Below are positions 19,202 to 41,906 of a stretch of DNA of 41,906 nucleotides, piece by piece; positions within the stretch are counted from its first letter, which is position 1, and every line of letters begins with the position of its first letter. Under the pieces are notes generated by a model that saw only the letters and a program-made list of their open reading frames with translations, had not been told where the DNA came from and did not search any database. The position numbers were made by a program, and so were the translations under genes. The DNA is taken from contig NZ_WTVS01000051.1 in NCBI RefSeq assembly GCF_012911005.2, positions 1-41,906 on the forward strand, read 5' to 3'. The stretch comes from Aromatoleum toluolicum (GTDB lineage: Bacteria; Pseudomonadota; Gammaproteobacteria; Burkholderiales; Rhodocyclaceae).

Positions 19202-19212
19202 GGGAGAAGACG

Positions 19213-20096: not shown

Positions 20097-21132
20097 CGCG
20101 CCCATCGTCAGCGCCCGTCCGCGCGTGCGCGTGGATGGCAGCGACCGTCCCGCGCTGGGCGAGGCGGCGGCCGCGCTGTCGGTGCATCTGCCGGCGAGCG
20201 GCATGGCGAGCGCGGAACTGCGCGTCGTCAATTGGGCGCCCGGCGGTAGCGGCACGCCGGACTTCGCCTTCCAGGACGTGCGCCTGGGCAGCCGCATCGA
20301 ATTCCTGCTCGGCGAGACGGCCGACAGCGCGGTGTTCTCCGGCGACATTACCGCCTTCGAGGAACGCTACGGCGACGGCGCGCCGCAGCTCGTGATCCTC
20401 GCCGAGGACCCGCTGCACAAGCTCGCCCGCAGCCGCGCGAGCCGGGTGTTCGAGAACAAGGGGCTGGCCGACGTCGTGCGCGAGATCGCGAGCGACGCGG
20501 GCCTGCAGGCCGACGTCAGCGTCGCTGCCGGCAGCGCGGACTGGCTGCAGCACAACGAGAGCCATCTCGCCTTCCTGCTGCGCGTGCTCGGTCCCCACGA
20601 CATCCCGCTGCGCATGCAGGGTGGGCGGCTGCGCGCGCGCCCCGAGGAGACGGACGCCAACCCGGTGCGCCTCGACTCCGGCGCCAACGCGCAGCGCATC
20701 CGCATCATCGCCGACCTCAACCGCCAGCCGCGCGAGGTGCTCGCGGACGGCTACAACCTCGCCTCCGATGCCGCCGCGAGCGGCAGCAGCTCGTCGCTCA
20801 AACCCGCGCCGGGCGGGCGCACGGCGGCGGCGACGCTCGCGGAACTCGGCTGGGACGGCCGCTCGCCGCGCCCGCATCCCTTCCCGCGCACGCAGGCGGA
20901 AGCCGAATCGCTCGCGCAGGGGGCCTTCCGCCGCGACGCGCAGCGCTTCCTGCACGGCGAGATCGTGTGCACCGGCACGCCCGAGCTGGGCGTCGGGCGC
21001 GAGGTCGAGCTCGCCGGGGTGTCGCCGCGGCTCGCCGGGCGCTACCGCATCGCCGACTGCTGGCATCACTTCGACAACGCGCAGGGCCTGTCGACCCGGC
21101 TGCGCGTCGAGCGTCCGGACTGGAACCCATGA
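20083..21132 (+). CDS. baseplate hub protein, gp27/GpD-like (N-terminal half of Afp8)
   Basis: This 349-residue protein has the fold signature of the phage late control D/gp27 family: PRVRVDG, tandem beta-barrel segments with VFSGDITAFEERYGDGAPQLVILAEDPLHKL-type sequence, DVVREIASDAGL, HNESHLAFLLRVLGPHDIPLRM and the closing RYRIADCWHHFD. It forms the trimeric hub that receives the spike. The start is TTG at 20083 with GGGAGG seven bases upstream. The stop overlaps the spike gene by four bases. In Afp8 and VgrG, hub and spike are one protein; here they are separate. Confidence 0.87.
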   Translation: MPSTSAPIVSARPRVRVDGSDRPALGEAAAALSVHLPASGMASAELRVVNWAPGGSGTPDFAFQDVRLGSRIEFLLGETADSAVFSGDITAFEERYGDGAPQLVILAEDPLHKLARSRASRVFENKGLADVVREIASDAGLQADVSVAAGSADWLQHNESHLAFLLRVLGPHDIPLRMQGGRLRARPEETDANPVRLDSGANAQRIRIIADLNRQPREVLADGYNLASDAAASGSSSSLKPAPGGRTAAATLAELGWDGRSPRPHPFPRTQAEAESLAQGAFRRDAQRFLHGEIVCTGTPELGVGREVELAGVSPRLAGRYRIADCWHHFDNAQGLSTRLRVERPDWNP

Positions 21133-23432: not shown

Positions 23433-23828
23433 ATGACGATGCCGACGCCGGAATCCCTGCTGATGAGCTTTCCGCTGCTCGCCGGCCTCGCCGACGACTG
23501 CCGCCCGCAGTGGCGGCGCGGCAACCCGAGCGTGCGCGAGGTGATGCTCAACATCCTGCTGACCCGCCCCGGCGAGCGCCTGATGCGCCCCGAGTTCGGC
23601 GCCGGCATCCGCAACTTCATCCATCACCCCAACAACGAGACCACGCGCGCACTGATCGCCGACGCCGCGCTGCGCGCGCTGACGCGCTGGGAACCGCGCG
23701 TGACGATCGAGGAGGTGCGCGTCACGCCCGACCGCGAACGCCTGTCGCACGTGAATCTCGAGGTGCGCTACCGGCTGCTCGCCGATGGCGGCCGGGAGAC
23801 GCTCGAACTCGCACTGGACCTCGGCTGA
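23433..23828 (+). CDS. baseplate wedge protein, gp25/GpW-like (Afp9)
   Basis: This 131-residue protein matches gp25: VREVMLNILLTRPGERLMRPEFGAGI and the hallmark RWEPRV with ITIEEV-type strand after it. gp25 proteins are the core of the baseplate wedge and nucleate the sheath. ATG 23433 or the in-frame ATG 23439 could start; GGGAG lies just upstream. It precedes the baseplate J gene by 13 bases, as in other contractile systems. Confidence 0.93.
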   Translation: MTMPTPESLLMSFPLLAGLADDCRPQWRRGNPSVREVMLNILLTRPGERLMRPEFGAGIRNFIHHPNNETTRALIADAALRALTRWEPRVTIEEVRVTPDRERLSHVNLEVRYRLLADGGRETLELALDLG

Positions 23829-23841
23829 GGGAAACATCAAC

Positions 23842-26043
23842 ATGGCGCTGCCCAACCTGCCTTTCAGTCAATTCCCCGTCCCCGACCTCGACGACCGCCG
23901 CTTCGACGAGCTGGTCGCCGAGCTGCAGGCGCGCCTCGCGCGCCACGTGCCGGAGATGGCGCCGCTCGCGCCGGGCGACCCGGTGCATGCGCTGGTCGAT
24001 CTCTTCGCGTGGCTCACCGAGACCGTCATCTATCGCGCGAACCAGATCCCGGAACGCCAGCGCCTCGCCTTCCTGAACCTGCTGCAGATTCCGCTGCGCC
24101 CGGCGCGGCCCGCGGCCGGCATCGTCAGCATCGACGCGAGCGGACGTGCATTGCCGCCGCTGATCGCGACCGAATCGCTGCTCAAGGCCGGCACGACGAG
24201 CTTCAGCACCGTCGGCGAAGTCCAGCCGACGCCGCTCGCGCTGCGCGTCGTCGTCAAGCGCACGCTCGACGAGGCCGCACTCGCCGCCGAAGGCATCAGC
24301 CTCGAGCAGCTGCGCGCACAGTATGGCGTCGAACCGGCCGCCTTCCGCCCGCTGACGCTGGTGCCCGGCCACGACGCGCTCACCGCCGCCGGCACGCGCG
24401 ACGGCGCCTTCCACCTCGCGATCTGCCTCGCCAAGCCCGCCTTCGTCGCACAGGCGGAGCTCATGCGCCGCGAGCTCGCCGGTATCGTGCTGAACGTCGG
24501 CCTCGCACCGCTCACCGAGCTCGAAGGCCGGCTCGCGACGGGGCTGCGCCCGCGCAAGCTCGCGTGGGAGCTCGCGTGGTGGCCCGACCCCGAGGACGCG
24601 CCACAGAACGTGCAGTACCTGCCGCTCGAAGTCGTCGCCGACAGCTCGGCCGGCGGGCGCAAGACCGGCGTCGCGCGCCTGCGCCTGCCGCGCAACGCCG
24701 ACATGCTGCGCGCGACCGCCGCGCTCGACCCGCAGTTCGCCGGCCTCGGCGACACGCCGCCCGAGGCGCCCGCGGACCTGCGCCCCGGCCAGCTGCTCTT
24801 CTGGCTGCGCCTGTCGTGCGCCGACGAGCCGAACCTGACGCTGGGCTACATCGGCGTGAACGCCGTCGACGTGAGCGGCCAGGGCATTGCGCGCGACATC
24901 GTGCTCGGCGCCGGCACCGGCCGCCCGGACCAGAGTTTCGAGCTGCCACATGCCGACGTCGACGCGGCGAGCGTCGAGGTCGATGTCGAGCACCTGCGCC
25001 ACTTCCAGCCCTGGACCCGGGTCGCGCATTTCGCCGGCAGCGGGCCGGACGACACGGTCTTCGTCGTCGACGCGGCAAGCGGCAGCGTGCGCTTCGGCGA
25101 CGGCATCCGCGGCAAGCGCCCGCCCGCCAACGCCCGCATTCGCGCGGCCTTCTATCGCCACGGCGGCGGTAGCCGGGGCAACCTGCCGCCCGACAGCATC
25201 AAGGAGATCCACGGCAACAGCGCCCGCCTCGCGCTGCGCCACGAATGGCCGACGCGCGGCGGCGTCGACGCCGAGACGCTGGACGAGGCCGAGCGCCGCA
25301 TCCCGGCCTTCCTCAGCCACCGCGACCGCGCGGTCACCGCCGAGGACTTCGGTGTGCTCGCACGCGACAACCCGGTCAACCCGGTCGCGCGCGCCGAAGC
25401 CGTCGCGGGCTTCTTCCCCGGCGCGAGCCTCACCGCGGTGCGCCGCAACATCCCCGGCGTCGTCGCGGTGTTCGTGATGCCGCCTGCGCCACAGGCGCTC
25501 GCCGCCGCGCCGCGCCCGAACGCGGGCCTGCTCGCCGACGTGCATGACTACCTCGCGGCGCGCTGCATGCTGGGCACCGAGCTTTACGTGCTGTCGCCGC
25601 AGTTCGTGCCGGTCGCCGTCGCGGCGTCGCTCGAAGTCGTCGATCCGGCGACCGAGCAGCAGGTCCATGCCGAGGTCGAGCGGGCGCTCTTGCGCTACCT
25701 GTGGGCACTGCCGCCGGGCGGGCCGCGCGGCGCCGGCTGGCCGCGCGGCAAGGCGGTCGAGATCAACGAACTGCGCACGCAGGCAGGCCGCGTCGAGGGC
25801 GTCGAGGCGGTCAACGCGCTGCGCCTCTTCTACCAGGACCAGCAGCAGAACCCGCCGCTGTGGCTGGAACTCACCGGCGCGCAGGCGCTGCCGCTGCTGG
25901 ACTTCCAGCTGCCGGAGCTGATGGCGGTCGCGATCCGCCCGGGCGAGGACCGCCCCGCGCCGCCGCGTGGCTTCGGGCCAGGCCGTCCGACCGAAGACGG
26001 CCCGCGCGCCGTGCCCGTCCCCGTGATCCCCGACCTGTGCTGA
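23842..26043 (+). CDS. baseplate J-like wedge protein (Afp11-like)
   Basis: This 733-residue protein is the gp6/baseplate J-type wedge. Features are GDPVHALVDLFAWLTETVIYRANQIPERQRLAFLNLL near the N-terminus, VRFGDGIRGKRPPANARIRAAFYRHGGGSRGN in the middle, TAEDFGVLARDNPVNPVARAEAV, and a C-terminal VLSPQFVPVAVAASLEVV with KAVEINELRTQAGRVEGVEAV. Six copies with the Afp12-like protein build the baseplate ring. ATG 23842 after GAGGGAAAC was chosen over an upstream in-frame codon inside the gp25 gene. The TGA is one base before the next start. Confidence 0.92.
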   Translation: MALPNLPFSQFPVPDLDDRRFDELVAELQARLARHVPEMAPLAPGDPVHALVDLFAWLTETVIYRANQIPERQRLAFLNLLQIPLRPARPAAGIVSIDASGRALPPLIATESLLKAGTTSFSTVGEVQPTPLALRVVVKRTLDEAALAAEGISLEQLRAQYGVEPAAFRPLTLVPGHDALTAAGTRDGAFHLAICLAKPAFVAQAELMRRELAGIVLNVGLAPLTELEGRLATGLRPRKLAWELAWWPDPEDAPQNVQYLPLEVVADSSAGGRKTGVARLRLPRNADMLRATAALDPQFAGLGDTPPEAPADLRPGQLLFWLRLSCADEPNLTLGYIGVNAVDVSGQGIARDIVLGAGTGRPDQSFELPHADVDAASVEVDVEHLRHFQPWTRVAHFAGSGPDDTVFVVDAASGSVRFGDGIRGKRPPANARIRAAFYRHGGGSRGNLPPDSIKEIHGNSARLALRHEWPTRGGVDAETLDEAERRIPAFLSHRDRAVTAEDFGVLARDNPVNPVARAEAVAGFFPGASLTAVRRNIPGVVAVFVMPPAPQALAAAPRPNAGLLADVHDYLAARCMLGTELYVLSPQFVPVAVAASLEVVDPATEQQVHAEVERALLRYLWALPPGGPRGAGWPRGKAVEINELRTQAGRVEGVEAVNALRLFYQDQQQNPPLWLELTGAQALPLLDFQLPELMAVAIRPGEDRPAPPRGFGPGRPTEDGPRAVPVPVIPDLC

Positions 26044-26044
26044 C

Positions 26045-28513
26045 ATGAACAGCAACGGCACCCGCTTCCTGCTCCTCGACGGCGCGTCGGATTTCCGCAA
26101 CGCGAGCCGCCAGTGCAGCTGGGACGTCGAGCAGCGCGCCTTCACGCTCACGCGCCAGGACGCCCCGCGCCTGCCGCAGATGCCGCCGGCACGCGCCCGC
26201 GCGCTGCTCGCCGCCGCGACGCCCTGGATCCTCGACGACCACGGCCAGCTCGGCCGCCTGTCCGACGACGGGCGGCGCTTCGAATGCGCGCTGCGCTGGC
26301 CGGCGGAGGCGGCGAGCGACTGGCAGCCGGTGCTCGCCGCGCTCGACGACGCCGAGACCGGTGCGCCGAACCTCGAAGCGCTGGTGCTCGACCCGGTCGA
26401 CGCCCCCGCCGGCCGCTTCACCGACCTCGCCTTCGGCGGCAGCGGGCTAGTCGCGCTGCCGTGGAGCGACGGCGGCGTCGGCAACGGCCTCACCACGGTG
26501 CATCTGCGCCGGCGCTGGCAGACCCGCTGCACGCTGCCCTTCGCGCCGCGCCGCGCATGGGTGGAGGCTGCAAGCGGGGGAACGACCGGCGCCGACCGGA
26601 TCTGGCTGCTCGGCGAAACGCGCCTGGGACTCGCCGTCGGCGCGCCGCTGCCGCAGCCCTACGTCGGCCGCCCCGAGCGCTTCGACCCGCTGCAGGCGAA
26701 CCCCGACCCGCTGCGCCTCCTGTGGGACATCGCCCTGCCGCCGCACGGCGGGCTGCTGGGGCTGGCCGCCGACGACGAGCGCCTCTACGTGCTGAGCGAA
26801 GCGACCGACAGCACGGCCGACGCGCCGCACATGCAGGTCTTCAGCCGCCCGCTCGCCGCCGGCCCCACGGAAGGTTTCCGCGTCCATCGCCTGCCCGACG
26901 CGCTGCCCGATGGTCTCCCCCTGGCGACCGACCTCGCCGCGCTCGGCGACGGCCGCTTCCTGCTGCTCCTGCCTTTCGAGGAAGGCGCCGAGCGCGGCAA
27001 GCGCCGCGATTGCCCGCTATTGTCGATTCCGGAGGACGAGGACGAGACCACCGCCGAACTCGTCGCCGAACGCTGGCCGCGGCGCTCCGAAGCCGCGCTC
27101 CCAGCCGCCGTCCGCTTCGTGCGCCACCGCGACGGCGCGCCGCGCACGCTGACCGCCGACGGCCCGATCCGCCTCTACCGCCTCGCCCAGGCGCACTTCG
27201 CCGCGCGCGGCACGGTCACGCTGAGCGAGATTCTCGACTCGACGATGCCCGACACGCTGTGGGACCGCCTGTGCCTTGACGCCTGCATCCCGCCCGGCTG
27301 CCGCATCGAGTTCGCCGTGCAGGCGGGCGACGACCGCAACGAGCTGCCCGATGAATGGATCGCGCAGCCGCAGCCGGTGCTCACGCCGCGTCCGTCCGAG
27401 CTCCCCTTTGCACCCGGCCGCGCGCCGCAGGGCGAGGAACACGACGACCACGCCGGGCTGTACGAGCTGCTGATCCAGCGCGGCAACGGCGCGGTGCGCG
27501 AAGTGCGCGGGCGCTACCTGCGCCTACGCATCACGATGCACGGCGACGGCCGCCACAGCCCGGCGATCTTCGCGCTGCGCGTGTATTACCCGCGCTTCTC
27601 GTGGCAGACGCACTACCTGCCCGACCACTTCCAGCAGCAGGAGCGTCCGCTGCCGCTGGAAGACGCCGACACTATCCCCGCCAACGGCGCCGATTTCCGC
27701 GAACGCCTGCTCGCGAGCCTGGAAGGCGTGCTGACGCCGCTCGAAGACCGCATCGCGGCGAGCGAGATCCTGCTGCAACCGGCCGCGACGCCCGCCGCGC
27801 GCCTGCCCTGGCTCGCCGGCCTGCTCGGCACGACGCTGCCACGCCACTGGCCCGAGGCGCGCCGCCGCCGCTGGCTCGCCGCGCAGGGGGCGATGCAGCA
27901 GGCGCACGGCAGCTACCGCGGCCTGCTCCTCGCGCTCGACATCCTGACCGACGGCGCGGTCGCGCGCGGCGCGGTGATTCCGGTCGAGCATTTCCGCCTG
28001 CGCCGCACGATGGCGACCATCCTCGGCATCGACATGGACGACCGCGACCATCCGCTGACGCTCGGCACCGGGCTCTCCGGCAACAGCATCGTCGGCGACA
28101 GCCTGATCCTCTCCGACGACCAGGCACGCGAATTCCTCGCGCTGTTCGCGCCGGAAGTGGCCGAGCGCACGGGCGAGACCGCCGTCGTGGACCGCTTCTT
28201 CGACGAGGCCGCGCGACGCATGACGGTGATCCTGCACGGCCCCGCGAAGCGCCTCGCCGCGGTCGTGCGCGACGCGCTGCCGTCGCTCGTGCCGGCGACC
28301 GTGCAATGGGCGATCCGCACGAGCGAGCACCCCTTCGTGCTGGGCCTGTCGCCGCTGCTGGGCATCGACACCTGGCTGGAAACCCAGCCGCCGCCGCGAC
28401 CCGTGGTGCTCGACCGCACCCGCCTCGGCCGCGGAGACCTGCTGCACAACCCGGTCGCACTCGATCCCGAGCACGCCGTGCCGATCGATACGGCCGTCAG
28501 TGACGGACAGTAA
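26045..28513 (+). CDS. baseplate wedge protein with beta-propeller-like N-terminus (Afp12-like)
   Basis: This 822-residue protein has two parts. The N-terminal about 350 residues contain spaced repeats such as RFTDLAFGGSGLVALPWSD, GLLGLAADDERLYVLS and DLAALGDGRFLLLLPFE, reading as a beta-propeller. The C-terminal part (about 490-740) matches the tail-protein family placed after baseplate J: RYLRLRITMHGDGRHSPAI, YPRFSWQTHYLPDHFQ, RLPWLAGLLGTTLP and QAHGSYRGLLLALDILT. It probably forms the outer wedge, and the propeller may bind fibres, glycans or the host envelope. It follows Afp11 by one base. Confidence 0.85.
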   Translation: MNSNGTRFLLLDGASDFRNASRQCSWDVEQRAFTLTRQDAPRLPQMPPARARALLAAATPWILDDHGQLGRLSDDGRRFECALRWPAEAASDWQPVLAALDDAETGAPNLEALVLDPVDAPAGRFTDLAFGGSGLVALPWSDGGVGNGLTTVHLRRRWQTRCTLPFAPRRAWVEAASGGTTGADRIWLLGETRLGLAVGAPLPQPYVGRPERFDPLQANPDPLRLLWDIALPPHGGLLGLAADDERLYVLSEATDSTADAPHMQVFSRPLAAGPTEGFRVHRLPDALPDGLPLATDLAALGDGRFLLLLPFEEGAERGKRRDCPLLSIPEDEDETTAELVAERWPRRSEAALPAAVRFVRHRDGAPRTLTADGPIRLYRLAQAHFAARGTVTLSEILDSTMPDTLWDRLCLDACIPPGCRIEFAVQAGDDRNELPDEWIAQPQPVLTPRPSELPFAPGRAPQGEEHDDHAGLYELLIQRGNGAVREVRGRYLRLRITMHGDGRHSPAIFALRVYYPRFSWQTHYLPDHFQQQERPLPLEDADTIPANGADFRERLLASLEGVLTPLEDRIAASEILLQPAATPAARLPWLAGLLGTTLPRHWPEARRRRWLAAQGAMQQAHGSYRGLLLALDILTDGAVARGAVIPVEHFRLRRTMATILGIDMDDRDHPLTLGTGLSGNSIVGDSLILSDDQAREFLALFAPEVAERTGETAVVDRFFDEAARRMTVILHGPAKRLAAVVRDALPSLVPATVQWAIRTSEHPFVLGLSPLLGIDTWLETQPPPRPVVLDRTRLGRGDLLHNPVALDPEHAVPIDTAVSDGQ

Positions 28514-28536: not shown

Positions 28537-29475
28537 ATGAGCGAGCCCGACAACAACTGCGACGCGAGCCTCGCCGGCGACGGCCGCTTCGAGGAGGCGC
28601 TGAAGCGCGTCAGCTACGAACCCGGCATGCTGCTGGGGCTGGAGGCGACGCGCGCCGAGCAGGACTACCACCGCCGCCGCGCGACGCGCCACGGCTACTG
28701 GCTGCATGGCGCCGGCACCGTCGCGGGCCTGCGCGTGAGCATCCGCGCCGAGGACCCCGGCAACGACACCGACCCTGTGCGTGTGCGCCTGGTGGTGAGC
28801 CCCGGCGTCGGCGTCGACGGCCTCGGGCGCGAGATCGGCGTGCCCGAACCCTACTGCGTCGATCTCGGCGCCTGGCTCACCGCCCAGCACGAGGACGAAG
28901 AGCTGTGGGGCGCGCTGATCCGCGACGGTTACGCCGAAGCCGACAACCTGCTGTGGCTCAAGGTCACGATGCGCTACCAGGACTGCCCGAGCGGCCTGCA
29001 GCCGGTGCTCGCGACCGAGGTGAATGCCGGCACCGACCCGGTGCAGCCCAGCCGCGTCGCCGACTGCGTGCTGTTCGAGCTCGTCGCCGAACGCCCCGCC
29101 GACGTCCCCGCGGAAGAACACCTCTTCGCCGCGCACAGCCGCATCAAGGCCTACGACGAAATCGAGGCGAATCTCGGCGAACGCGAACGCGCGCAGGTCG
29201 AGGCCGCCGCCGGCGCCGCGCGCACCCAGCTCGAACTCGGCGCGCGTCTGCTGCATTCGCTCGGCGACGACAACCAGGCGCTGGTCGCCCGTCAGGCCTT
29301 CCTAACCGACCCCGCCCAGCTTGCCCGCACGCTCCTCGCACGCATCGCGATCCGCCTCACGCCGCCCGCGCCCGAGCCGGACCTGATCGTCAATCCGCGC
29401 CGCATCGAGGTCGACAACCTCGTGCGCCCCTTCCTCTTCAACGCCGCCGCGCTCGCCCGGCTGATCCGCGCATAA
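28537..29475 (+). CDS. CIS paralogue 1 of a shared N-terminal domain family
   Basis: This 312-residue protein carries at about residues 27-110 a domain also found in the next two gene products. It runs from YEPGMLLGLEATRAEQDYH through HGAGTVAGLRVSI to VVSPGVGVDGLGREI. The remaining part is alpha-helical and Glu/Ala-rich (EIEANLGERERAQVEAAAG) and ends hydrophobic (LVRPFLFNAAALARLIRA). No signal peptide or catalytic motif is visible. GGGGAAAAG precedes the ATG. I recognise the domain only as recurring beside eCIS baseplate genes and cannot name it; a peripheral baseplate or fibre-network role is inferred from position. Confidence 0.7.
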   Translation: MSEPDNNCDASLAGDGRFEEALKRVSYEPGMLLGLEATRAEQDYHRRRATRHGYWLHGAGTVAGLRVSIRAEDPGNDTDPVRVRLVVSPGVGVDGLGREIGVPEPYCVDLGAWLTAQHEDEELWGALIRDGYAEADNLLWLKVTMRYQDCPSGLQPVLATEVNAGTDPVQPSRVADCVLFELVAERPADVPAEEHLFAAHSRIKAYDEIEANLGERERAQVEAAAGAARTQLELGARLLHSLGDDNQALVARQAFLTDPAQLARTLLARIAIRLTPPAPEPDLIVNPRRIEVDNLVRPFLFNAAALARLIRA

Positions 29476-29486
29476 AGGGAACCGCC

Positions 29487-32036
29487 ATGGCCAACATTCG
29501 CTTCACTCCGCTCCGGATCGGCACGACCAACGCGGCCGGCGAGCGCATTTCCAGCATCGACCCGCTGCTGTCGCGCACGAACTACTTCGACGGCCAGCTG
29601 CTGAAGGCGTCCGACCTCAACCGCGACCAGATCTACCTCGACGAGCGCCTGCTGGAGCTCGGCCAGGTCTTCGGCGCCGGCATCGTGCGCGGGCTCGACC
29701 TCAGCCTGCAGTCCGGCCATATCCTGCGGGTCGAGCCCGGCATCGCGATCGCGCCGTCGGGCCGCGTGCTGCAGCTCGCGAACACGCCGCTGACGATAGA
29801 CCTCCTCAACAGCGGCCTGATCGCGACGCTCAACGACGGCCGCTTCCGCAGCTACGCGCGCGGCCTGTACGCGCTCGCGCTCACGCATGCCCAGGTCGTC
29901 GACGGCGTCGCCGAGGCCTTCCCCAAGGACCTTGCCGCGCCGCGCGTCCCGCACGTCGCCGCGTGGGCCGAAGGGGTCGAGCTGCGCCTGATGCCGCTGC
30001 CGCTGCCCCTGCCGCGCCAGGACGAGATCGCGGTACGCGCGACGCTCGCGCGTGAGCTCCTGTCCGGCGGCGACCGCCTCGCGCTGCCGTCCGACGACGC
30101 CGTCGCGCTGGGCCTGATCGCGGTCGAGCGCGGCCGCATCCTGTGGATCGACCGCGGCCTGCTGCGCCGCCCGCAGCGCGCGCTGAACACCCCCAACGCG
30201 ATCCAGCAGGACCTCGCGGCGCACTACCAGGAGCTGATGCAAACGGTGCTGACGATGCGCCAGAGCGCGGGGCTGCGCGGCGCCTTCGCGGCGAGCCAGT
30301 ACTTCCGCGTGCTGCCGCCGTGGGGGCCGCTGCCGCAGGACTCGATCGACCCCATTGGCGGACGCCAGCAATACTTCCCCAAGGATTACGAGGTCAGCAT
30401 CGCGCCGGTGCGCCGCAGCGAGCTCGCCGCCGTGCTCGCCGATTCCGCCCACCTCGCACCGATCGACCTCGAACGCGACGCCGACTGCGACGTGATGGTG
30501 CTGGTGCCGATGAGCGACACCGCCTTCGCGCTGCGTGCGCGCCAGCTCGAAGCGCCGGCGAGCTTCACGCCGCGTTCGCTGGGCCGGCTCGCGCGCCTCG
30601 ACCGCCTCGCGCTGCGCATCCTGCCGCAGCCGCCAATCCACCGCATCGACACCGACGCCGACGTGTGGCGCACGATCTGGGCCGACGTGAATCCGGCCGA
30701 GCTGATGTACGTGCGCCGCCCGCCGCGCACCGCCGAAACGGGCGTCAGCGCCGTCGTGCTCGCGCTCGGCATGACATTGCCGCCCCCGGGCAGCGCGCTG
30801 CCGCCCGACGCCGCGGCCCTCGAAGAGCAACTCGATGCCGCGCTCGAAGACGTGGACGCTGCCGAGGAGGCGCAGGCCGCGCTGGAGGCGGAGATCGCGC
30901 GCCTGAAGGTCCGCATCGCCGAACTCGAAAAGGCGGTCGCGGCCGGCGGCGGCGACCAGAGCCTGACCGACGCGCTGGCCGAGATCGAACGGCTCAAGCT
31001 CGCGCTCGACGCCGCGCAGAAGGAAATCGAGGCGCTGAAGGCCGACGACCGCAACGCGGTCATCCTCGCCAACGCGCTGGAGGCCTCCAGCGACCGCATC
31101 GACGAGCTGAAGGCCGAACTCGACGCCGCGCGCGCCGAGATCGAGCGCCTGAAGACGACCAGCTCGCCGATCGACGAAACCCTCAAGCAGCGCATCGAGG
31201 AACTCGCCGCGGCGCTGGAAGCCGAACGCGCGAAATCCGCCGCGCTGGAGCAGGAACGGACCACGCTCACCGCGCAGCTCAACGACGCGCAGCGGCGCAT
31301 CACCCAGCTCGAAGCCGAACTGAAGGACGCGCTCGCGAAGCTCGAAGCGGCGAGCGGCAGCGTCAGCAGCACCGACGCCGACCTGGTGGCAGTGCGCGAG
31401 GAACTGGCGAAGCTGAAAGCCGAACTCGATGCGACGCGCGGCACGCTCGCGACGTCGAATGCCGAACTCGCCGACACGCGGACCAAGCTCGACGCGAGCG
31501 TCGCCCGCGAGTCCACCGCGGTGGCGTCGCTCGCCGACGCACTCCGGCGCATCGACGAACTGCAGACCACGGGCAGCACCAGCAGCACCGAAATCACCAC
31601 CCTGCGCAACCGCGTCGGCACGCTCGAAACCCAGCTCAGCAGCGCGAACACGACGATCGAGCGGCTCAAGACCGAAGCCGCACAGGGCACCGATCTCGCG
31701 GCCGAACTGACGCTGGAACGCCTCGCGCGGGCACGCGGCGCCGATGCGGCCGGCATCAAGTCCGCCACCGCGGCGGACACCCTGATCGCCGGCAACGAGG
31801 CCGCGCGCATCGCCGCGGTGCAGCTCGTCGGCCTCGCCGACCGCCGCCTCGACCCCGCGCTGTGGCCGAGCATGATGGCCATCGCCCGCAAGGACGTGGT
31901 CCTGTTCCAGAAGCTGCGCGACCGCTTCGTCGACGCCGCCGGCAACATCAATCTGCCCGAGTTCTTCATGGCCGAGGGCAAGGATTTCGGCCTCACCGAC
32001 AAGCACATCGAACTCTGGAAGCAGGTCGCCGGCTAA
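29487..32036 (+). CDS. CIS paralogue 2 with long coiled coil; tape-measure or fibre candidate
   Basis: This 849-residue protein has the shared N-terminal domain at about 33-110 (YFDGQLLKASDLNRDQIYL, GAGIVRGLDLSL, VEPGIAIAPSGRVLQL), a globular middle to about 435, and about 310 residues of heptad-rich coiled coil from about 440 to 750 (IARLKVRIAELEKAV, IEELAAALEAERAKS). A globular C-terminal end follows (about 755-849). Heptads are interrupted by Ser/Thr-rich links near SGSVSST and TGSTSST. No membrane segments are seen. No other gene here looks like Afp14, so this could be the tape measure. An elongated tail fibre or baseplate strut fits equally well. ATG 29487 follows AAAGGGA. Confidence 0.72.
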   Translation: MANIRFTPLRIGTTNAAGERISSIDPLLSRTNYFDGQLLKASDLNRDQIYLDERLLELGQVFGAGIVRGLDLSLQSGHILRVEPGIAIAPSGRVLQLANTPLTIDLLNSGLIATLNDGRFRSYARGLYALALTHAQVVDGVAEAFPKDLAAPRVPHVAAWAEGVELRLMPLPLPLPRQDEIAVRATLARELLSGGDRLALPSDDAVALGLIAVERGRILWIDRGLLRRPQRALNTPNAIQQDLAAHYQELMQTVLTMRQSAGLRGAFAASQYFRVLPPWGPLPQDSIDPIGGRQQYFPKDYEVSIAPVRRSELAAVLADSAHLAPIDLERDADCDVMVLVPMSDTAFALRARQLEAPASFTPRSLGRLARLDRLALRILPQPPIHRIDTDADVWRTIWADVNPAELMYVRRPPRTAETGVSAVVLALGMTLPPPGSALPPDAAALEEQLDAALEDVDAAEEAQAALEAEIARLKVRIAELEKAVAAGGGDQSLTDALAEIERLKLALDAAQKEIEALKADDRNAVILANALEASSDRIDELKAELDAARAEIERLKTTSSPIDETLKQRIEELAAALEAERAKSAALEQERTTLTAQLNDAQRRITQLEAELKDALAKLEAASGSVSSTDADLVAVREELAKLKAELDATRGTLATSNAELADTRTKLDASVARESTAVASLADALRRIDELQTTGSTSSTEITTLRNRVGTLETQLSSANTTIERLKTEAAQGTDLAAELTLERLARARGADAAGIKSATAADTLIAGNEAARIAAVQLVGLADRRLDPALWPSMMAIARKDVVLFQKLRDRFVDAAGNINLPEFFMAEGKDFGLTDKHIELWKQVAG

Positions 32037-35764: not shown

Positions 35765-37444
35765 ATGACCACCGCCGACCTCCACATCGGCCGCGTCGTG
35801 CTGCGCGGCACCGCCAGCGCGATCGACCACGCCCGCGCGACGCTCCCGGCGGCGCTCGCGCGCACGCACTGGCCGGCCGACGAGGCCATCGTCGTCGTCC
35901 GCCGCCTCACCGTCGACGGCACCGCGAGCGAACTGCCCGCCCGCGCCGCCGCCGCGGCCGAACACCTTACCCGCCGCGCCGCCGACCCCTGGAGCCCCGC
36001 CGCCGACGCCGCCGAGGCCGTACGCTTCCGCGATGCGCTCGACTACCGCGCCTGCCTCGTGCGCGACCTCCTTAGCGGCACCGCCGCGCGGCGCTGGCTA
36101 TGGCGCCACCGTGCAAGCCTGCTCGCCCGCCCCGCGGCACAGGCGGTCGCCGACCTGTTCGCCGAAGACGCCCTCGCCCTGCCGGCCCTGCTCGAACGCC
36201 CCGCGCTACGCGACCACCTGCCCGCACTCTGGCGCACCCTCGACGCCCCCGCCGCCCGCACCCTCCTGCACGCCATCGGCACCGCGACCGGCTGGCAAGA
36301 GGCCATCATCAGCGCACTCGATCCGACCCATGAACGCAGGGCGGAAGAGCGAAGCGCCTTCCGCCGCATGGATGGCGATGGATTTGGCGAGGCGTCCTTG
36401 GGCTCTTCGCCGGTGCATGCGGTGGGGCATGGGGCAAGCTCGGCCTTCGGCTCATCCGCCCTACGATCCGCGCTACCTATCGACCTGCCCCCGTCCGACC
36501 CGCGCGTCGTCCTGCAGGCCGTGCTCGCACTGTGGACGCATGCCCCCGCTACATTGGCCGCCGCCACCGCCGGCGAAATCTTGCGTGCCACGGCCGAAAC
36601 CTTCGTACCTGCTGCGCCGCGCACCGAACCCAAGACGAAAGACCCGCGCGAACCGCACACTCCGAGCGCAGGAGCGTCCCGCGAGGCGAGCGAACCCGCG
36701 TCCGACTCGACGCAGGCCGGCACCGCCGCAACGCCGGTGCCGCCAACGAGCCCGCCGCAAGGGACAGCACCGCCCGACCACGACGCAAACGCTGTCACCC
36801 GAAACACCCCGGCAGGGGATATGCCGGACAAATCACCGACGCGCGCCCCCGCCACGCCCTCCCGAGTCTCCTCCGTCGCGGCTTCGCCCGCGACCCTTCC
36901 GCCGGCCGCGGATGTGGACTTCCACACCCGCGGCGGCGGTTTCTTCTTCCTGCTCAACGTGCTGAACCTGCCGGCCCTGCGCGACTGGCGCGCGACGCTC
37001 GTCGAGCCCCAGGCCGGATGGCGCGAACTCGTCCGCCTCGCCGGCAGCCTGGATTTTTCCCCCGACGCCCCGCTCGCCGCCTTTCTCGCCGCGACCTGCG
37101 ACCTCGCAACGGACGGCGACCCCGCCGCCGCGCTCGCGGCCCTTCCCGCAGGGGCCGACCTTGCCCCGGTACGCGACGCCGCCTTCCGCCACTACGGCGC
37201 AACGGCCCTCGCCGCCGCACTCGCCGAGCGCCCCGGCCGCGTCCGCGCGACCCGCAGCCATCTCGACGTGCATCTGCGCCTCAGTGACGTCCACCGCGAC
37301 GTGCACCTCGACATCCGCCGCACCGGCCTCGACCTCGACCCCGGCTGGCTGCCCTGGCTCGGCCGCGTCGTGCGCTTCCACTACGACAGCGGAGAACTTG
37401 CGGAGAAATTGTCGCGGGCAGGGTCGAGTGCAAGGCGCGAATGA
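35765..37444 (+). CDS. CIS-associated protein of unknown function, interrupted by an in-frame repeat
   Basis: This 559-residue protein has an N-terminal Ala/Arg-rich helical domain (1-190), an in-frame repeat-encoded stretch (about 191-234), a helical segment, then about 110 residues rich in Pro, Thr, Ala and Ser that look disordered (about 280-385). A C-terminal domain follows, with FHTRGGGFFFLLNVLNLPAL near 390 and a closing HLDVHLRLSDVHRDVHLDIRR. The FFFLLNVL segment is hydrophobic but short for a membrane helix. It lies just before the AAA+ gene, where eCIS loci often carry such a gene. The role is unknown; an ATPase partner or assembly factor is a guess from position. Confidence 0.65.
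   Translation: MTTADLHIGRVVLRGTASAIDHARATLPAALARTHWPADEAIVVVRRLTVDGTASELPARAAAAAEHLTRRAADPWSPAADAAEAVRFRDALDYRACLVRDLLSGTAARRWLWRHRASLLARPAAQAVADLFAEDALALPALLERPALRDHLPALWRTLDAPAARTLLHAIGTATGWQEAIISALDPTHERRAEERSAFRRMDGDGFGEASLGSSPVHAVGHGASSAFGSSALRSALPIDLPPSDPRVVLQAVLALWTHAPATLAAATAGEILRATAETFVPAAPRTEPKTKDPREPHTPSAGASREASEPASDSTQAGTAATPVPPTSPPQGTAPPDHDANAVTRNTPAGDMPDKSPTRAPATPSRVSSVAASPATLPPAADVDFHTRGGGFFFLLNVLNLPALRDWRATLVEPQAGWRELVRLAGSLDFSPDAPLAAFLAATCDLATDGDPAAALAALPAGADLAPVRDAAFRHYGATALAAALAERPGRVRATRSHLDVHLRLSDVHRDVHLDIRRTGLDLDPGWLPWLGRVVRFHYDSGELAEKLSRAGSSARRE
36335..36465. repeat. REP/MITE-like element inside a coding region
   Basis: Terminal inverted repeats of eleven bases with one mismatch lie at 36335-36345 and 36455-36465 (GGGCGGA core against TCCGCCC). 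The left end also forms its own hairpin, GGCGGAA at 36340-36346 with TTCCGCC at 36359-36365. The element is about 131 bases long, has no stop in the host frame, and shares its left end with the repeat at 35712. It adds about 43 Ser/Gly/Arg-rich residues to the host protein. Confidence 0.78.
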
Positions 37445-37550
37445 GCGAACGACGAGACATATCAGGCAGATAGGCGAGGAGAGAGCGAGTGGGCAACGCA
37501 GCAATCGACACGCGCAGCAGATTTGTTCGCAGGTTCGGAGGTATCCAGTC

Positions 37551-39614
37551 ATGAACGCACCCGCGACGCCAGTTCCGCAGTCCGCTCCCCACATCGACGG
37601 CGCCCGCCTGTCGCGCGCCTTCGTCCATGCCGGCATCGCCCACTTCGCGAAGCTGAGCCTCGGCGCCCCGTCGGCGGTGTTCGACGCCCTCGCCGCGAGC
37701 CACGCCGGCGAAGATCTCGCGACCCTCCTCGACACTCCGCGCGACGACTGGCATGCAGCCTGCGTCGCGCTCGCACGCGTCGCCCCCGAACTGCGCGGCC
37801 CCCTCGGGCGCCTGCTCGCCGACCTGCAGCTGCAGCTCCACGAATGGTTCGCGCTTGCACTGTGCGGCGAGAACGAATCGAGCTACCTCCTCAACCTCGC
37901 GCTCGCCGAACTGCAATCGCCCGGCGCGCTGCGCCCCGGCCTGCACCTCGTCGCCGCTGCGAGCGACGCCCTGTTCGGCGCCCAGTTGCCGCCGCTGGCG
38001 CTCCCCAACCACCGCCTCGTGCGCGCCGGCGTGCTCGACGTGGTGGGCGACGGCCCGATGCCCACGCGCACGCTGGCCGTCACGCCCGAACTGTGGGCGC
38101 TGCTATGCGGCGACACCAGCGCGTGGCGCGACACCGCCCCGCTGCCGGTCAGCGATGCGGTGCTGCCGCAGAGCTTCTGCGAACAACTGCCCTCGCTCGC
38201 CACCATGCTGCGCACCGGGGCCACCCGCCATGTCGTGTTCCGCGGTGCACGCGCCGCCGGCCTCGCCGCCGCTGCACGGCTCGCCGCCGCCGTGGGCCGC
38301 CCGCCGCTGCAGATGGAGGCCGCCACCTGGACGCGCCAGCCCGCGCTCGCCGCCGCGTGCCGCTACGCCGGCTGGCTGCCGGCGCTCGCGCTGGAGCTCG
38401 GCCCCGGCGAACGCCACGTGCTGCCCGAGCACCCGGCGCTCACCGTGCCGCTGCTCCTCGTCACCGGCCGCGACGGTGCGATCGAAGCCCCCGCGCTGGT
38501 CGAGATCGACCTGCCCCCGCTCACGACGCAGGAACGCCGCGACGCCTGGCGCAGCGCGCTCGCCTCCAACGACCAAACCTCCGACGAAACCTCCAGCGAA
38601 AGGCCCGGCGACACCCAGCTGGAGACCCGCCTGCGCGAATTCGCCGGCCACGCGCTCCTCGACGGTCCCACCGTGCACACGCTCGCCGAACGCGTGCGCC
38701 TCGACGCCCAGGTGCGCGGCGAAACGCCCGGCCTCGCCCACCTGCGCCGCGCCCGCGCCGGCTTCGGCAGCGAACGCCTGCGCCAGCTCGCCCAGCCGGT
38801 CACGCGTGAAGTCGGCCCCGACGAGCTGGTGCTGCCCGACGAACTCCTCGAACGCTTCGACGCCCTCGTCGCCCGCTGCCGCCAGCGCGAATCCCTCTCG
38901 GACGGTCTCGGCGCGAGCCTCGCCGACCCTGCGCCCGGCGTGCGCGCGCTGTTCTGCGGCGAAAGCGGCGCCGGCAAGACGCTCGCCGCGAGCCGGCTGG
39001 CGACGCTGCTCGGCGCGCCGCTGTTCCGCGTCGACCTCTCCGCGGTGATGAACAAGTACATCGGCGAGTCCGAGAAGAACCTCGGGCGGCTCCTCGACGA
39101 AGCCGCCGCGCTCGACGTGCTGCTCCTCATCGACGAGGCCGACGCCCTCTTCGGCCGCCGCGGCGAAGGCAAGGAAACCGGCGAGCGCTACGCCAACATG
39201 CTCACCAACTTCCTGCTCACGCGCATCGAACAGCACCCCGGCATCGTGGTCCTAACGAGTAACAACCGCGGCCGCATCGACAGCGCCTTCACCCGCCGCT
39301 TCGATGCGATCATCGAGTTTCCTCCGCCGGGCGTGGCCGAACGCCTGCGCATCTGGCAGTCGCACTTGGGGCAGCGCTCCCCCGACGCCGCCCTGTGCCG
39401 TCAGCTCGCAAGCTACTGCACACTGCCCGGCGGCCACATCCGCAACGCCGTGCTGCAGGCCGCGGCGCTCGACCCCGCCGCAGCCGGGAAGCAAGCCGGC
39501 GACGCCACCCGCCCGATCGCCGCCGAGCAGCTCGTCGCCGCGCTGATCGACGAATACCGCAAGATCGGCCGCACCCCGCCGCCGCAATTGATGCACGCGC
39601 GGGGCACGTCATGA
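37551..39614 (+). CDS. AAA+ ATPase of the CIS (Afp15-like)
   Basis: This 687-residue protein has an N-terminal winged-helix/tandem region of about 430 residues and a C-terminal AAA+ module. Walker A is GESGAGKT near residue 470, Walker B LLLIDEADALFG near 523, sensor 1 VVLTSNNR and the arginine region SAFTRRFD. The pore-like segment MNKYIGESEKNL follows Walker A. Afp15-type ATPases are needed for assembly or maturation of eCIS particles and stay in the producing cell. ATG 37551 has a good site, GGAGGT, eight bases upstream. A 106-base gap precedes it, possibly with its own promoter, though none is obvious. Its stop overlaps the DUF4157 gene by four bases. Confidence 0.9.
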   Translation: MNAPATPVPQSAPHIDGARLSRAFVHAGIAHFAKLSLGAPSAVFDALAASHAGEDLATLLDTPRDDWHAACVALARVAPELRGPLGRLLADLQLQLHEWFALALCGENESSYLLNLALAELQSPGALRPGLHLVAAASDALFGAQLPPLALPNHRLVRAGVLDVVGDGPMPTRTLAVTPELWALLCGDTSAWRDTAPLPVSDAVLPQSFCEQLPSLATMLRTGATRHVVFRGARAAGLAAAARLAAAVGRPPLQMEAATWTRQPALAAACRYAGWLPALALELGPGERHVLPEHPALTVPLLLVTGRDGAIEAPALVEIDLPPLTTQERRDAWRSALASNDQTSDETSSERPGDTQLETRLREFAGHALLDGPTVHTLAERVRLDAQVRGETPGLAHLRRARAGFGSERLRQLAQPVTREVGPDELVLPDELLERFDALVARCRQRESLSDGLGASLADPAPGVRALFCGESGAGKTLAASRLATLLGAPLFRVDLSAVMNKYIGESEKNLGRLLDEAAALDVLLLIDEADALFGRRGEGKETGERYANMLTNFLLTRIEQHPGIVVLTSNNRGRIDSAFTRRFDAIIEFPPPGVAERLRIWQSHLGQRSPDAALCRQLASYCTLPGGHIRNAVLQAAALDPAAAGKQAGDATRPIAAEQLVAALIDEYRKIGRTPPPQLMHARGTS

Positions 39615-41906
39615 GCAGCCTCGCCGCCGGCCTGCGCCGCAAGAGCGCACCGGAAAGGAAGGCGCCGGGCGGCGCCCCCGAGGCCAAGCCCGCCGGGAAA
39701 CCAACGGCCGCAGGCAAGGCCCCCGCCGATCCGGCCGCCGGCGCGGCGCCGCAATCGCCCGACGGCGCGACCGGAGCCGGCACGCCGCAGGAAACGCGCC
39801 CCGGCGCCCCCGGCTACCTGCAGGCCAAGCTCGCCGTCAGCCACCCGCAGGATCCCGAGGAGCGCGAGGCCGACCAGGTCGCCGGCGAAGTGCGCCGGGC
39901 GCTGCGCACGCCGCAGGACGCCGCAGCCGGCGCGCCATGCCCCACCTGCAGCGGCGCCGCCCCGCGCGGCAGCCTCGAACCCGCGATCACCCCGCCGAAG
40001 AAGGAAGTCCTCGCGCCCAAGCTGCTGCGCGCGGCCGCAGCCGGCGACGGGGAAAAAACTACCGCGGCGACCGGCGAGGCGGAAAAGGCCGGCACCACCC
40101 CCGGCGCGAAACCCGCCGCGGACGCCCCCAAGACCGCCGCCGGCGGCGCCGACGCCCTCGCCGGCAAGTCCGCGCCCCCCGCCACCGAACAGCGTGTCGC
40201 CGCCCGCCAGGGCCAGGGCGCGCCGCTCGACCCCGAGCTGCGCGCGAAGCTCGAAGCCCAGCTCGGCCGCGACCTCTCCGCCGTGCGCATCCACACCGAT
40301 GCCGAAGCCGACGCGATGTGCGTCGAGATGCACGCGCGCGCCTTCACCGTCGGCAACGACGTGTATTTCTCCGCCGGCAGCTACGCGCCGGAGAGCGATG
40401 CGGGCCTCGAACTCCTCGCCCACGAGCTCGCCCACGTCGGCCAGCAGGCCGAAGCCGGCGGCCCGCAGAGCGCCGCGCCGAAGCTGCAGCGCGACTTCTG
40501 GGACGACCTTTTCGGCGGCGGCGGCGACCCCGCCGACCCGATGGCCGCGTGCAACAAGGAACTCGACAAGGCGGAAAAATGGGCCAAGGCCGGCCCCTAT
40601 CCGGCCGCGCCGAAGGGCATCGTCGGCGCGGCGGGTTTCGGCGGCTTCGACGCGCAGTACCGCCCCGACGCCGTCGAAGGCGAGGGTGTGCTCGACATCA
40701 AGCAGGGCGTCGCCGCCGAATTCAAGGACACCCTGGTGCAGAACGCGGGCGTCGTCGCCCCGCACCCGGACCTCTCGGCCACTCCGGAAATCACCGCGCT
40801 CGCCGCCCGCATCAACGCAATCCCCGTCGCGATCGTGCGCAACGCGCTGCTGTCGCTCTACCAGTGGACACCTGCTGAACAAGCGCCCTGGCTCGCCAAC
40901 CTGAAGTCGCTGATCGAATCCACGTGGGGCGGCAAGCACAGCTTCTTCCTCAACAAGCCGCGCTGGACCTGGCTGGGCGCTGAGGTGAAGGTGGCCCTCG
41001 ACATCGGCCGCCGCGCAAAGGCCGCCGGCGACCACATGACGGCGGAGATCTTCAAGACGCCCCCCGGCGAGAGCCTGCGCACCTTCGACATCTCGCACGA
41101 AGTCGGGTCGGGCAGTAAGGCCGACCCCGCCGACCAGACCATGCGGCTCGCCAGCACGACCACCGGGCCGAAGGAGTACGACCTGCTGCGCCAGTCCGTC
41201 GAGTTCGGCTACAACTCGGACGTGCTGACGGGGGCCGCGATTGGCCAGCTCAACGGTTTCATCGCGCGATTCAACGGTGCGGTCGGGAATGCCGCGCATC
41301 AGGAAGTGCGTGTCGAGATCGTCGGCCACACCAGCGCCGCCGGCACCGAGCAGTACAACCTCGACCTCTCCGAACGGCGCGCCAACGCGGTGCGCGACTA
41401 CCTCGCCAACAACGGCTTCGCGAACACCGCAACACGCGTGACCATCACGCCGCGCGGCGAATCGGAAGCCGACCAGACCCAACCGAAGCGCGCCACCGAC
41501 CAACGCGCGGACCTCATCGTCGATGGCGGCGAGCGCATGATCACGGCCGCGCACGAATGGGGGCACGCCTTCGGCGTGGACGACGAGTACGTGACCGGCG
41601 GCACGAGCATCGGCGATCCGGTCGACCACGACGCCATGACCAAGGCGATGACCGACGCCAACGGCGTCCATCTGCCCGGCGCGATCAAGGAACACAACGG
41701 CGGCATCATGTCCTTCGGCACCGAAGTGCGGCCGCAGCACTACGCCACCTTCCACCACGCGCTGACCACCGTCACCGCGCAGTCGCCATGGTCGCTGGGC
41801 CTGCACAAGCCCAAGTGGCAGGTCGCAATGGAATGCGGCACCCCCTCACCGAAGGGCGACTGGCCGACGCCGACCCCGAACCCGCCGACCCCCGGGACCT
41901 GTCTCT
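39611..41906 (+). CDS. DUF4157 - OmpA-like - metzincin protein, 3' truncated by the window
   Basis: The frame stays open from ATG 39611 to the window end (at least 765 residues, no stop). Residues 1-75 are Ala/Pro/Lys-rich and disordered-looking, followed by a CPTC pair near 110. The DUF4157 (eCIS core) domain at about 215-280 has LGRDLSAVRIHTDAEADAM, ARAFTVGNDVYFS and the zinc-protease motif HELAHVGQQ near 271. An OmpA-like segment at about 565-640 has VEIVGHTSAAGTEQYN and LSERRANAVRDYL. A second zinc motif HEWGHAFGVDDEY at about 648 fits HExxHxxGxxD of metzincins, with a Met-turn candidate GIMSFG near 700. DUF4157 proteins mark eCIS loci as processing proteases or cargo. The far C-terminus is missing. 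Confidence 0.88.
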   Translation, partial: MSSLAAGLRRKSAPERKAPGGAPEAKPAGKPTAAGKAPADPAAGAAPQSPDGATGAGTPQETRPGAPGYLQAKLAVSHPQDPEEREADQVAGEVRRALRTPQDAAAGAPCPTCSGAAPRGSLEPAITPPKKEVLAPKLLRAAAAGDGEKTTAATGEAEKAGTTPGAKPAADAPKTAAGGADALAGKSAPPATEQRVAARQGQGAPLDPELRAKLEAQLGRDLSAVRIHTDAEADAMCVEMHARAFTVGNDVYFSAGSYAPESDAGLELLAHELAHVGQQAEAGGPQSAAPKLQRDFWDDLFGGGGDPADPMAACNKELDKAEKWAKAGPYPAAPKGIVGAAGFGGFDAQYRPDAVEGEGVLDIKQGVAAEFKDTLVQNAGVVAPHPDLSATPEITALAARINAIPVAIVRNALLSLYQWTPAEQAPWLANLKSLIESTWGGKHSFFLNKPRWTWLGAEVKVALDIGRRAKAAGDHMTAEIFKTPPGESLRTFDISHEVGSGSKADPADQTMRLASTTTGPKEYDLLRQSVEFGYNSDVLTGAAIGQLNGFIARFNGAVGNAAHQEVRVEIVGHTSAAGTEQYNLDLSERRANAVRDYLANNGFANTATRVTITPRGESEADQTQPKRATDQRADLIVDGGERMITAAHEWGHAFGVDDEYVTGGTSIGDPVDHDAMTKAMTDANGVHLPGAIKEHNGGIMSFGTEVRPQHYATFHHALTTVTAQSPWSLGLHKPKWQVAMECGTPSPKGDWPTPTPNPPTPGTCL

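What the first reader, a model, noticed from the sequence alone, without database searches (positions are those of the whole stretch)
39611..41906. DUF4157 protein carrying two zinc-protease motifs and an OmpA-like segment
One open frame holds the eCIS marker motif HELAHVGQQ, an OmpA/peptidoglycan-binding-like segment (VGHTSAAGTEQYN ... ERRANAVRDYL) and a second protease motif HEWGHAFGVDDEY with a Met-turn-like GIMSFG about 50 residues later. DUF4157 proteins are known eCIS companions. The combination of a DUF4157 zincin, a wall-binding domain and a metzincin in one chain suggests a cargo that could process itself, dock on peptidoglycan and cut a target protein. Aspartate as the third zinc ligand (HxxGxxD) would place it near M7/M64-like groups.
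Basis: partly seen in the sequence, partly recalled or inferred. Interest (0 to 1): 0.85.

Follow-up and report, generated by a model that had tools for sequence, protein, structure and literature searches.

The report
Injection-machine protease with inserted OmpA-like domain
A gene near the end of a bacterial syringe-like injection cluster encodes what is probably an injected protein-cutting enzyme; its wall-binding-like domain has lost a key wall-binding residue, and in some distant relatives the next gene resembles a protease inhibitor, which suggests a weapon with its own safety catch.

Summary
One frame from ATG 39611 to the contig end holds an eCIS_core (DUF4157) domain, an OmpA-like domain and a second zinc motif HEWGHAFGVDDEY with a GIMSFG Met-turn. 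It follows the AAA+ gene of an eCIS cluster, overlapping it by 4 nt. With relatives from Proteobacteria, Desulfobulbaceae, Acidobacteria, Deinococcales and a cyanobacterium, 20 loci were compared; 12 of 14 genomes examined also carry a sheath gene. The middle region, OmpA domain and HExGH...DEY...MS form one conserved module, fused to eCIS_core or encoded beside it. The catalytic residues are invariant in 15 aligned sequences. The OmpA diaminopimelate-binding Asp is Ser in 18 of 19 and Asn in 1, against Asp in 18 of 19 control OmpA domains, so canonical wall docking is unlikely. The OmpA domain probably sits inside the metzincin domain; a neighbouring OmpA-less paralogue with HEFGHAIGLKH supports this, but no model does. 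In 7 of 20 loci, none in the window's clade, the next gene belongs to one small family; 3 of its 7 members match Emfourin, a metalloprotease inhibitor, below cut-off. Best reading: an eCIS cargo metzincin. AlgoCIS Cgo1 is a precedent for DUF4157 plus a second HExxH, so this is a new variant, not a new kind.

The parts
39611..41905 (+). eCIS cargo-type protein, 765 residues, cut by the contig end (about 16 residues missing; last 2 residues probably adapter)
39803..39820 (+). leader motif GAPGYL (pattern GxPx[YF][LMV]) in the variable N-terminal region, residues 65-70
   Evidence: motif in 12 of 16 family members, 6 of 15 other eCIS_core entries, 7 of 772 other ORFs (unequal stretches scanned)
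40223..40456 (+). eCIS_core (DUF4157) domain, residues 205-282; HELAH at 40421-40435
   Evidence: Pfam 104.1 bits; only match in the genome assembly
40553..41179 (+). middle region, about residues 315-523, proposed N-terminal half of the metzincin domain
   Evidence: conserved in the relatives long enough to show it; OmpA-less paralogue in L035 is the best non-family hit of its profile, E 0.011 for the sequence but 0.2 for the best stretch; inferred
41177..41527 (+). OmpA-like domain, about residues 523-639; Ser575 (41333-41335) replaces the pocket Asp, Arg590 (41378-41380) kept
   Evidence: Pfam; Foldseek and VIA; residue counts; alignment; positions
41528..41845 (+). C-terminal half of the zinc protease: HEWGHAFGVDDEY (41552-41590), Met-turn GIMSFG (41702-41719), RPQHYAT
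37551..39614 (+). AAA+ ATPase, directly upstream with a 4-nt overlap
   Evidence: Pfam AAA 85.7 bits for the frame 37161-39614; start 37551 inferred from the relative in L060
14474..28513 (+). eCIS structural genes: sheath 14474-16654, tubes 16674-17132 and 18737-19201, CIS_tube 19198-19932, baseplate hub 20083-21132, Baseplate_J 23785-26043, Tail_P2_I 26045-28513
   Evidence: Pfam

Best explanation
The gene encodes a cargo protein of the adjacent eCIS. A variable leader with a GxPx[YF]L motif and the eCIS_core domain serve loading by the neighbouring AAA+ ATPase; in other lineages eCIS_core is supplied by a separate upstream gene. The working part is a metzincin-type zinc protease (His648, Glu649, His652, Asp658, Met-turn Met700) whose domain is interrupted just before the active-site helix by an OmpA-like domain. 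That domain has lost the diaminopimelate-binding Asp, so it more likely recognises a substrate or partner, or stabilises the enzyme, than anchors it to peptidoglycan. After firing, the protease would cut proteins in the target. In 7 of 20 related loci, none in the window's clade, the next gene encodes a small protein of a single family that weakly matches Emfourin, consistent with a self-protecting inhibitor. Shown here: sequence anatomy, eCIS context, invariance, loss of the Asp, partner gene. Inferred: cargo status, role of the leader, domain nesting, proteolysis, inhibition.
For: Follows the AAA+ gene in a cluster with sheath, tube, hub and baseplate genes. Of 14 genomes with relatives examined, 12 have a sheath gene and 12 an eCIS_core gene; the sheath is on the same contig, about 15 to 34 kb away, in 9 of 14. 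eCIS_core is in cis in the window clade, L034, L054 and L055/L062 (for those scanned with Pfam; 25, 41, 75 for the rest), and in a separate gene directly upstream in L035, L037, L058 and L059. Several unfused members share leader motifs with neighbouring eCIS_core proteins. Catalytic and Met-turn residues are invariant; dN/dS zincin 0.138, eCIS_core 0.145, leader 0.453. OmpA Asp: Ser 18 of 19, Asn 1 of 19; controls Asp 18 of 19, Cys 1 of 19. L035 carries a nearby OmpA-less paralogue with HEFGHAIGLKH. Partner gene within -4 to +37 nt of the protease gene, with the start codons I chose; its profile A9 finds exactly one place in 7 of 18 genomes, always that gene; Pfam Emfourin matches 3 of 7 members, best E 1.5e-4, below cut-off. 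Tube-lumen cargo precedent Cgo1.
Against: No predicted structure supports the metzincin fold: model 1 has pLDDT mostly about 30-50 after the active-site helix and model 2 is useless at mean pLDDT 40. No Pfam or NCBIfam protease model passes its cut-off in the members scanned. The middle-region link to the OmpA-less paralogue is weak (E 0.011 for the sequence, 0.2 for its best stretch). No partner gene was found in 11 of 18 genomes, among them the window's. Emfourin is below its cut-off, 2 of 7 partner members match DUF6438 instead and 2 of 7 neither; the profile-profile link between the two partner groups has a probability of only 34.6%. One genome (G846) has neither sheath nor eCIS_core, G843 no sheath, G847 no eCIS_core. 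Four of 16 members lack the leader motif. Cgo1 toxicity in E. coli did not depend on its HExxH motifs.
Confidence: 0.6

Rival explanations
1. It is a wall-docking protease: the OmpA domain binds peptidoglycan of the target and holds the metzincin there.
For: OmpA fold is clear and the pocket Arg is invariant in 15 aligned sequences.
Against: The pocket Asp is Ser or Asn in 19 of 19 distinct family sequences, against Asp in 18 of 19 controls. Asp271 and Arg286 of AbOmpA bind diaminopimelate (PMC7573547, one passage read).
Confidence: 0.12
2. It is not injected; it is an assembly or maturation protease of the eCIS itself, for example cutting a tail or cargo protein inside the producer.
For: Overlap with the AAA+ gene and strong purifying selection; eCIS genes in 12 of 14 genomes examined, from several phyla.
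Against: Patchy: 7 of 199 genomes of the window's family, the window included, carry the middle region, and in the sampled phylum of L038 only L038's own genome, 1 of 199. It has a cargo-type leader, and 7 of 20 loci have a putative inhibitor gene.
Confidence: 0.2
3. The second zinc site is structural or dead, and the whole module is a carrier or adaptor.
For: Pfam and NCBIfam protease models are all below cut-off; Cgo1 toxicity is motif-independent.
Against: The catalytic Glu, three ligands and the Met-turn are invariant across phyla; the L035 paralogue has the classical HExxHxxGxxH; a putative inhibitor gene is next door in 7 of 20 loci.
Confidence: 0.15

Closest known systems
AlgoCIS Cgo1 (ALPR1_12695, Algoriphagus machipongonensis)
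   Same: Disordered N-terminus, DUF4157 and a C-terminal region with a second putative HExxH motif; eCIS-encoded and shown to be tube-lumen cargo (PMC8894135, passages read)
   Different: An OmpA domain or partner gene is not mentioned in the passages read; I had no sequence of it to compare
EAT4 (Mucilaginibacter sp. OK098)
   Same: DUF4157 within the protein, predicted metalloendopeptidase, antibacterial when expressed (PMC8213781, passages read)
   Different: Predicted peptidyl-Lys metalloendopeptidase; the word OmpA does not occur in the held main text
M6 peptidases (immune inhibitor A; 4yu5, PF05547, TIGR03296)
   Same: HExGHxxGxxDEY type of active site; best weak match of the zincin profile and the most regular weak Pfam match
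   Different: Below every cut-off; the matches lie round the active-site segment; no OmpA insertion (recalled)
OmpA/Pal/OprF C-terminal domains
   Same: Fold and the LSxRRA helix with the pocket Arg
   Different: Pocket Asp replaced by Ser or Asn in 19 of 19; flanked on both sides by protease-module sequence
Protealysin-emfourin operon (Serratia proteamaculans)
   Same: Metalloprotease gene and inhibitor gene in one operon (PMC9505478, passages read)
   Different: Protealysin is an M4 protease (recalled), not eCIS-linked in the passages read; the partner here is below the Emfourin cut-off and not found in the window clade

Membership tests
eCIS_core / DUF4157 (PF13699) | Pfam score above cut-off, with HExxH | tested here: met
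   104.1 bits against 22; HELAH residues 271-275
eCIS_core / DUF4157 (PF13699) | encoded in an eCIS cluster | tested here: met
   sheath, tubes, hub, baseplate and AAA+ genes in the window
OmpA-like domain (PF00691) | sequence and fold | tested here: met
OmpA-like domain (PF00691) | diaminopimelate-binding Asp | tested here: not met
   Ser575; Ser 18 of 19 and Asn 1 of 19 in the family
OmpA-like domain (PF00691) | pocket Arg | tested here: met
   Arg590, invariant in 15 aligned sequences
Metzincins, clan MA(M) | HExxHxxGxx(H/D) motif | tested here: met
   HEWGHAFGVDD, zinc-site positions invariant
Metzincins, clan MA(M) | Met-turn under the zinc site | tested here: inconclusive
   MSxG invariant about 50 residues on in the window, but its position in space is not modelled
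Metzincins, clan MA(M) | N-terminal beta-sheet subdomain before the active-site helix | tested here: inconclusive
   proposed to be the middle region; models too poor, sequence link E 0.011, best stretch 0.2
Peptidase M6, M7, M10, M12 or M64 (Pfam) | score above the curated cut-off | tested here: not met
   all below cut-off in the window protein and in seven relatives scanned
Emfourin (PF20242), downstream partner in relatives | score above the curated cut-off | tested here: not met
   L062 partner 21.7 bits against 27; 3 of 7 members match at E up to 1
Emfourin (PF20242), downstream partner in relatives | gene next to a metalloprotease gene | tested here: met
   next to the putative protease gene in 7 of 20 loci; one genomic place each in 7 of 18 genomes
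eCIS cargo / EAT | found in the tube lumen and released on contraction | not testable with these tools
   inferred from DUF4157, position and leader

The most novel reading that the evidence does not exclude
A cross-phylum family of eCIS-delivered metzincins in which an OmpA fold, having lost its wall-binding Asp, is inserted inside the catalytic domain as a substrate-recognition element, and which in several lineages is paired with an emfourin-like cognate inhibitor as an effector-immunity pair.
Probability: 0.35. Interest if true: 0.75.

Novelty: new variant of a known kind. Interest (0 to 1): 0.6.

Why it matters
The function of the DUF4157 (eCIS_core) domain is described as still to be studied, and most of the tested antibacterial eCIS toxins lack recognisable immunity genes, which Geller et al. 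call an intriguing mystery (PMC8213781, passages read). This family offers the same protease module with eCIS_core in cis and in trans, and with and without a putative inhibitor gene. That makes it a natural comparison for asking what eCIS_core does and how producers protect themselves. It also suggests an OmpA fold turned from wall anchor into part of a protease.

Tried and rejected
Chance motifs or a frame artefact: rejected. Phage, plasmid or viral homologues of the module: none found; 29 plasmid records matched and the 20 listed rows lie on the OmpA part, the phage search had no match, and three viral-contig scans confirmed no relative. Whole C-terminal query in 200 genomes of the order: 186 matched, swamped by ordinary OmpA proteins; some of these served as controls. 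Middle region alone against 185 genomes of the class: only the window. Zincin profile against 398 genomes of the phylum: besides the window, four genomes with short active-site matches, which by sequence look like M6 proteases (recalled, not scanned). OmpA-less paralogue in the sampled phylum of L035: besides itself, 1 of 244 genomes with a 35-residue match. PDB profile searches of the middle region and of the partner gave nothing useful. A Foldseek or VIA listing without a zincin match does not exclude the fold, since the OmpA domain fills the list and the zincin part is badly modelled. A correlation of the partner gene with eCIS_core fusion was looked for and not seen: present in fused L034, L054 and L055 and in unfused L035 and L038; absent in the fused window clade and in unfused L023, L024 and L037. 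NCBIfam and PHROGs gave only OmpA-type, weak M6 and unnamed matches. Literature: no paper in the held library joins eCIS, OmpA and metalloprotease, contractile injection system and metzincin, or DUF4157 and OmpA. Dropped before counts: L041 (weak, a different 102-residue frame); L029 is merged with the window in the motif count because the context is identical; L025 and L039 carry the same sequence, and L051 matches L029's contig place, so each pair counts once among the 20 loci.

Full report
What is there. The frame starts at ATG 39611, overlapping the stop of the AAA+ gene by 4 nt, and runs to the end of the contig without a stop; the window is the whole contig. The protein has 765 readable residues. 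The Cupriavidus relative continues for 16 residues beyond the shared part. The last 8 bases resemble a Nextera adapter start (recalled). Pfam finds eCIS_core at residues 205-282 (104.1 bits) and OmpA at 561-628 (48.5 bits); no protease family passes its cut-off. The gene is the last readable one of an eCIS cluster with sheath, two tube genes, CIS_tube, hub, Baseplate_J, Tail_P2_I and AAA+. The genome assembly has no other eCIS_core match. In a congener assembled as one contig the next gene is a second eCIS_core protein (L060), so the window contig probably stops at that junction. The host is inferred to be Aromatoleum: contig C129 of a same-genus genome carries the gene at the place where L029, Aromatoleum diolicum, has it.

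The family. Genome searches added L023, L024 and L052-L056, giving 20 loci with the window. It is rare in samples: 6 of 274 genomes of the class at E up to 0.01, the window included and two of them marginal; 7 of 199 genomes of the family, the window included. Alignment of 15 members, three of them cut short at the N-terminus, shows that the middle region, the OmpA domain and the HExGHxxGxxDEY...MSxG...PxHYxT segment travel together. So this is one module and not a chance combination. Mean identities within the window clade are highest in eCIS_core (0.89) and zincin (0.87) and lowest in the leader (0.59); dN/dS is 0.145, 0.138 and 0.453.

eCIS link. Of 14 genomes with relatives, 12 have a sheath gene and 12 have eCIS_core genes; the sheath is on the same contig as the module, about 15 to 34 kb away, in 9 of 14 (G439, G444, G837-G841, G844, G845; contig places). 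G846 has neither, G843 no sheath and G847 no eCIS_core; in these three the module lies on a contig of 5 to 30 kb. In the window clade and in L034, L054 and L055/L062 eCIS_core is fused in front of the module. In L035, L037, L058 (holds L023) and L059 (holds L024) a separate eCIS_core gene stands directly upstream. For L038 no eCIS_core match was listed on its contig. A GxPx[YF][LMV] motif is present in 12 of 16 family members, 6 of 15 other eCIS_core entries and 7 of 772 other ORFs, over stretches of unequal length. In L035 three neighbouring genes (stand-alone eCIS_core, the family member, and an OmpA-less metzincin) share a different leader containing RPFSDP and ASTADFS or ASADFS. This suggests a common loading route, eCIS_core not being needed in cis; that is an inference.

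The protease. The profile of the C-terminal segment matches, weakly, the active-site region of InhA M6 (E 0.0047), MMP-9 (0.021), snapalysin (0.10) and M64 (0.27). Pfam M6 appears below cut-off in the window and in 7 of 7 module-bearing relatives scanned, and M7 in 2 of them. Asp at the third-ligand position is invariant in 15 aligned sequences. Only about 100 residues run from the HExGH motif to the end of the conserved part, so the beta-sheet subdomain that precedes the active-site helix in metzincins (recalled) would have to lie before or within the OmpA domain. The natural candidate for that half is the middle region before the OmpA domain. Support: L035 carries, near its family member, a 452-residue paralogue in which a similar middle region runs into HEFGHAIGLKH, with His as third ligand and no OmpA domain; it is the best non-family hit of the middle-region profile, at E 0.011 for the sequence and 0.2 for the best stretch. 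Pfam gives this paralogue only sub-threshold metzincin matches (Reprolysin, Matrixin, M43). Neither predicted model resolves the fold, so the nested arrangement is an inference.

The partner gene. Directly downstream of the protease gene in L034, L035, L038, L040, L054, L055 (L062) and L056 lies a small gene, overlapping by 4 nt or within 37 nt with the starts I chose. The proteins form one family: L034-L035 are 29% identical over 113 residues (tblastn E 3e-15 among the loci), L038-L040 54%, and L054-L056 match the L038/L040 profile. The L035 protein is the best hit outside the set used to build the wider profile (E 8.6e-4 among 4504 ORFs); the profile-profile comparison gives P 4e-4 but a probability of only 34.6%. 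A profile of all seven finds exactly one place in 7 of 18 genomes, always this gene, and none in the other 11, among them the window's genome and its clade. Pfam gives Emfourin for 3 of 7 members (best E 1.5e-4, below cut-off) and DUF6438 for 2 of 7. Emfourin is the inhibitor encoded in the protealysin operon and was proposed as an immunity protein (PMC9505478, passages read). Of the 20 loci, 7 have the partner, 11 with readable downstream sequence do not, and in 2 (window, L029) the contig ends.

What is known. AlgoCIS Cgo1 has DUF4157 and a C-terminal second HExxH, lies in the tube lumen, and inhibits E. coli growth independently of both motifs (PMC8894135, passages read). EAT4 is a DUF4157 protein with a predicted metalloendopeptidase (PMC8213781, passages read). 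DUF4157 is discussed as an aid to loading or a chaperone (PMC11297309, passages read). So a DUF4157 cargo with a second zinc motif is not new. The OmpA-interrupted metzincin family was not found in the held literature by the three searches; of the two papers that name emfourin I read passages of one.

Verdict. Observation confirmed; interpretation partly supported. Most likely an eCIS-delivered metzincin with a repurposed OmpA-like insertion, a new variant of a known kind of eCIS cargo.

Noticed in passing
L034:10448-11323, L035:10377-10970, L038:10279-10668, L040:970-1356, L054:458-874 (-), L062:8140-8550, L056:959-1375: Small gene directly after the protease gene, one family, best Pfam match Emfourin (below cut-off); candidate inhibitor or immunity gene.
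   Followed up: yes
L035:10927-12285: OmpA-less metzincin paralogue with HEFGHAIGLKH near the OmpA-containing one, sharing its leader with two neighbouring genes.
   Followed up: partly
window 41899-41906: Terminal ctgtctct resembles the start of a Nextera transposase adapter (recalled); probably untrimmed, so the last two residues are not real.
   Followed up: partly
L060:5114-8548; also after the module in L030-L033, L052, L053: A second, larger eCIS_core protein follows in the window clade; in L060 Pfam finds no other domain above cut-off. The window contig stops just before it.
   Followed up: partly
L054 and L055 eCIS_core (HELAHVVSG): eCIS_core copies (93 bits in both) that keep HExxH but lose the usual QQ after it.
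   Followed up: partly
window 17137-18744: Open frame between the two tube genes with no Pfam match; whether it is a gene was not tested.
   Followed up: no
window 28905-32036: Long frame in the eCIS cluster with only weak eukaryotic coiled-coil Pfam matches below cut-off; perhaps tail-length related.
   Followed up: no
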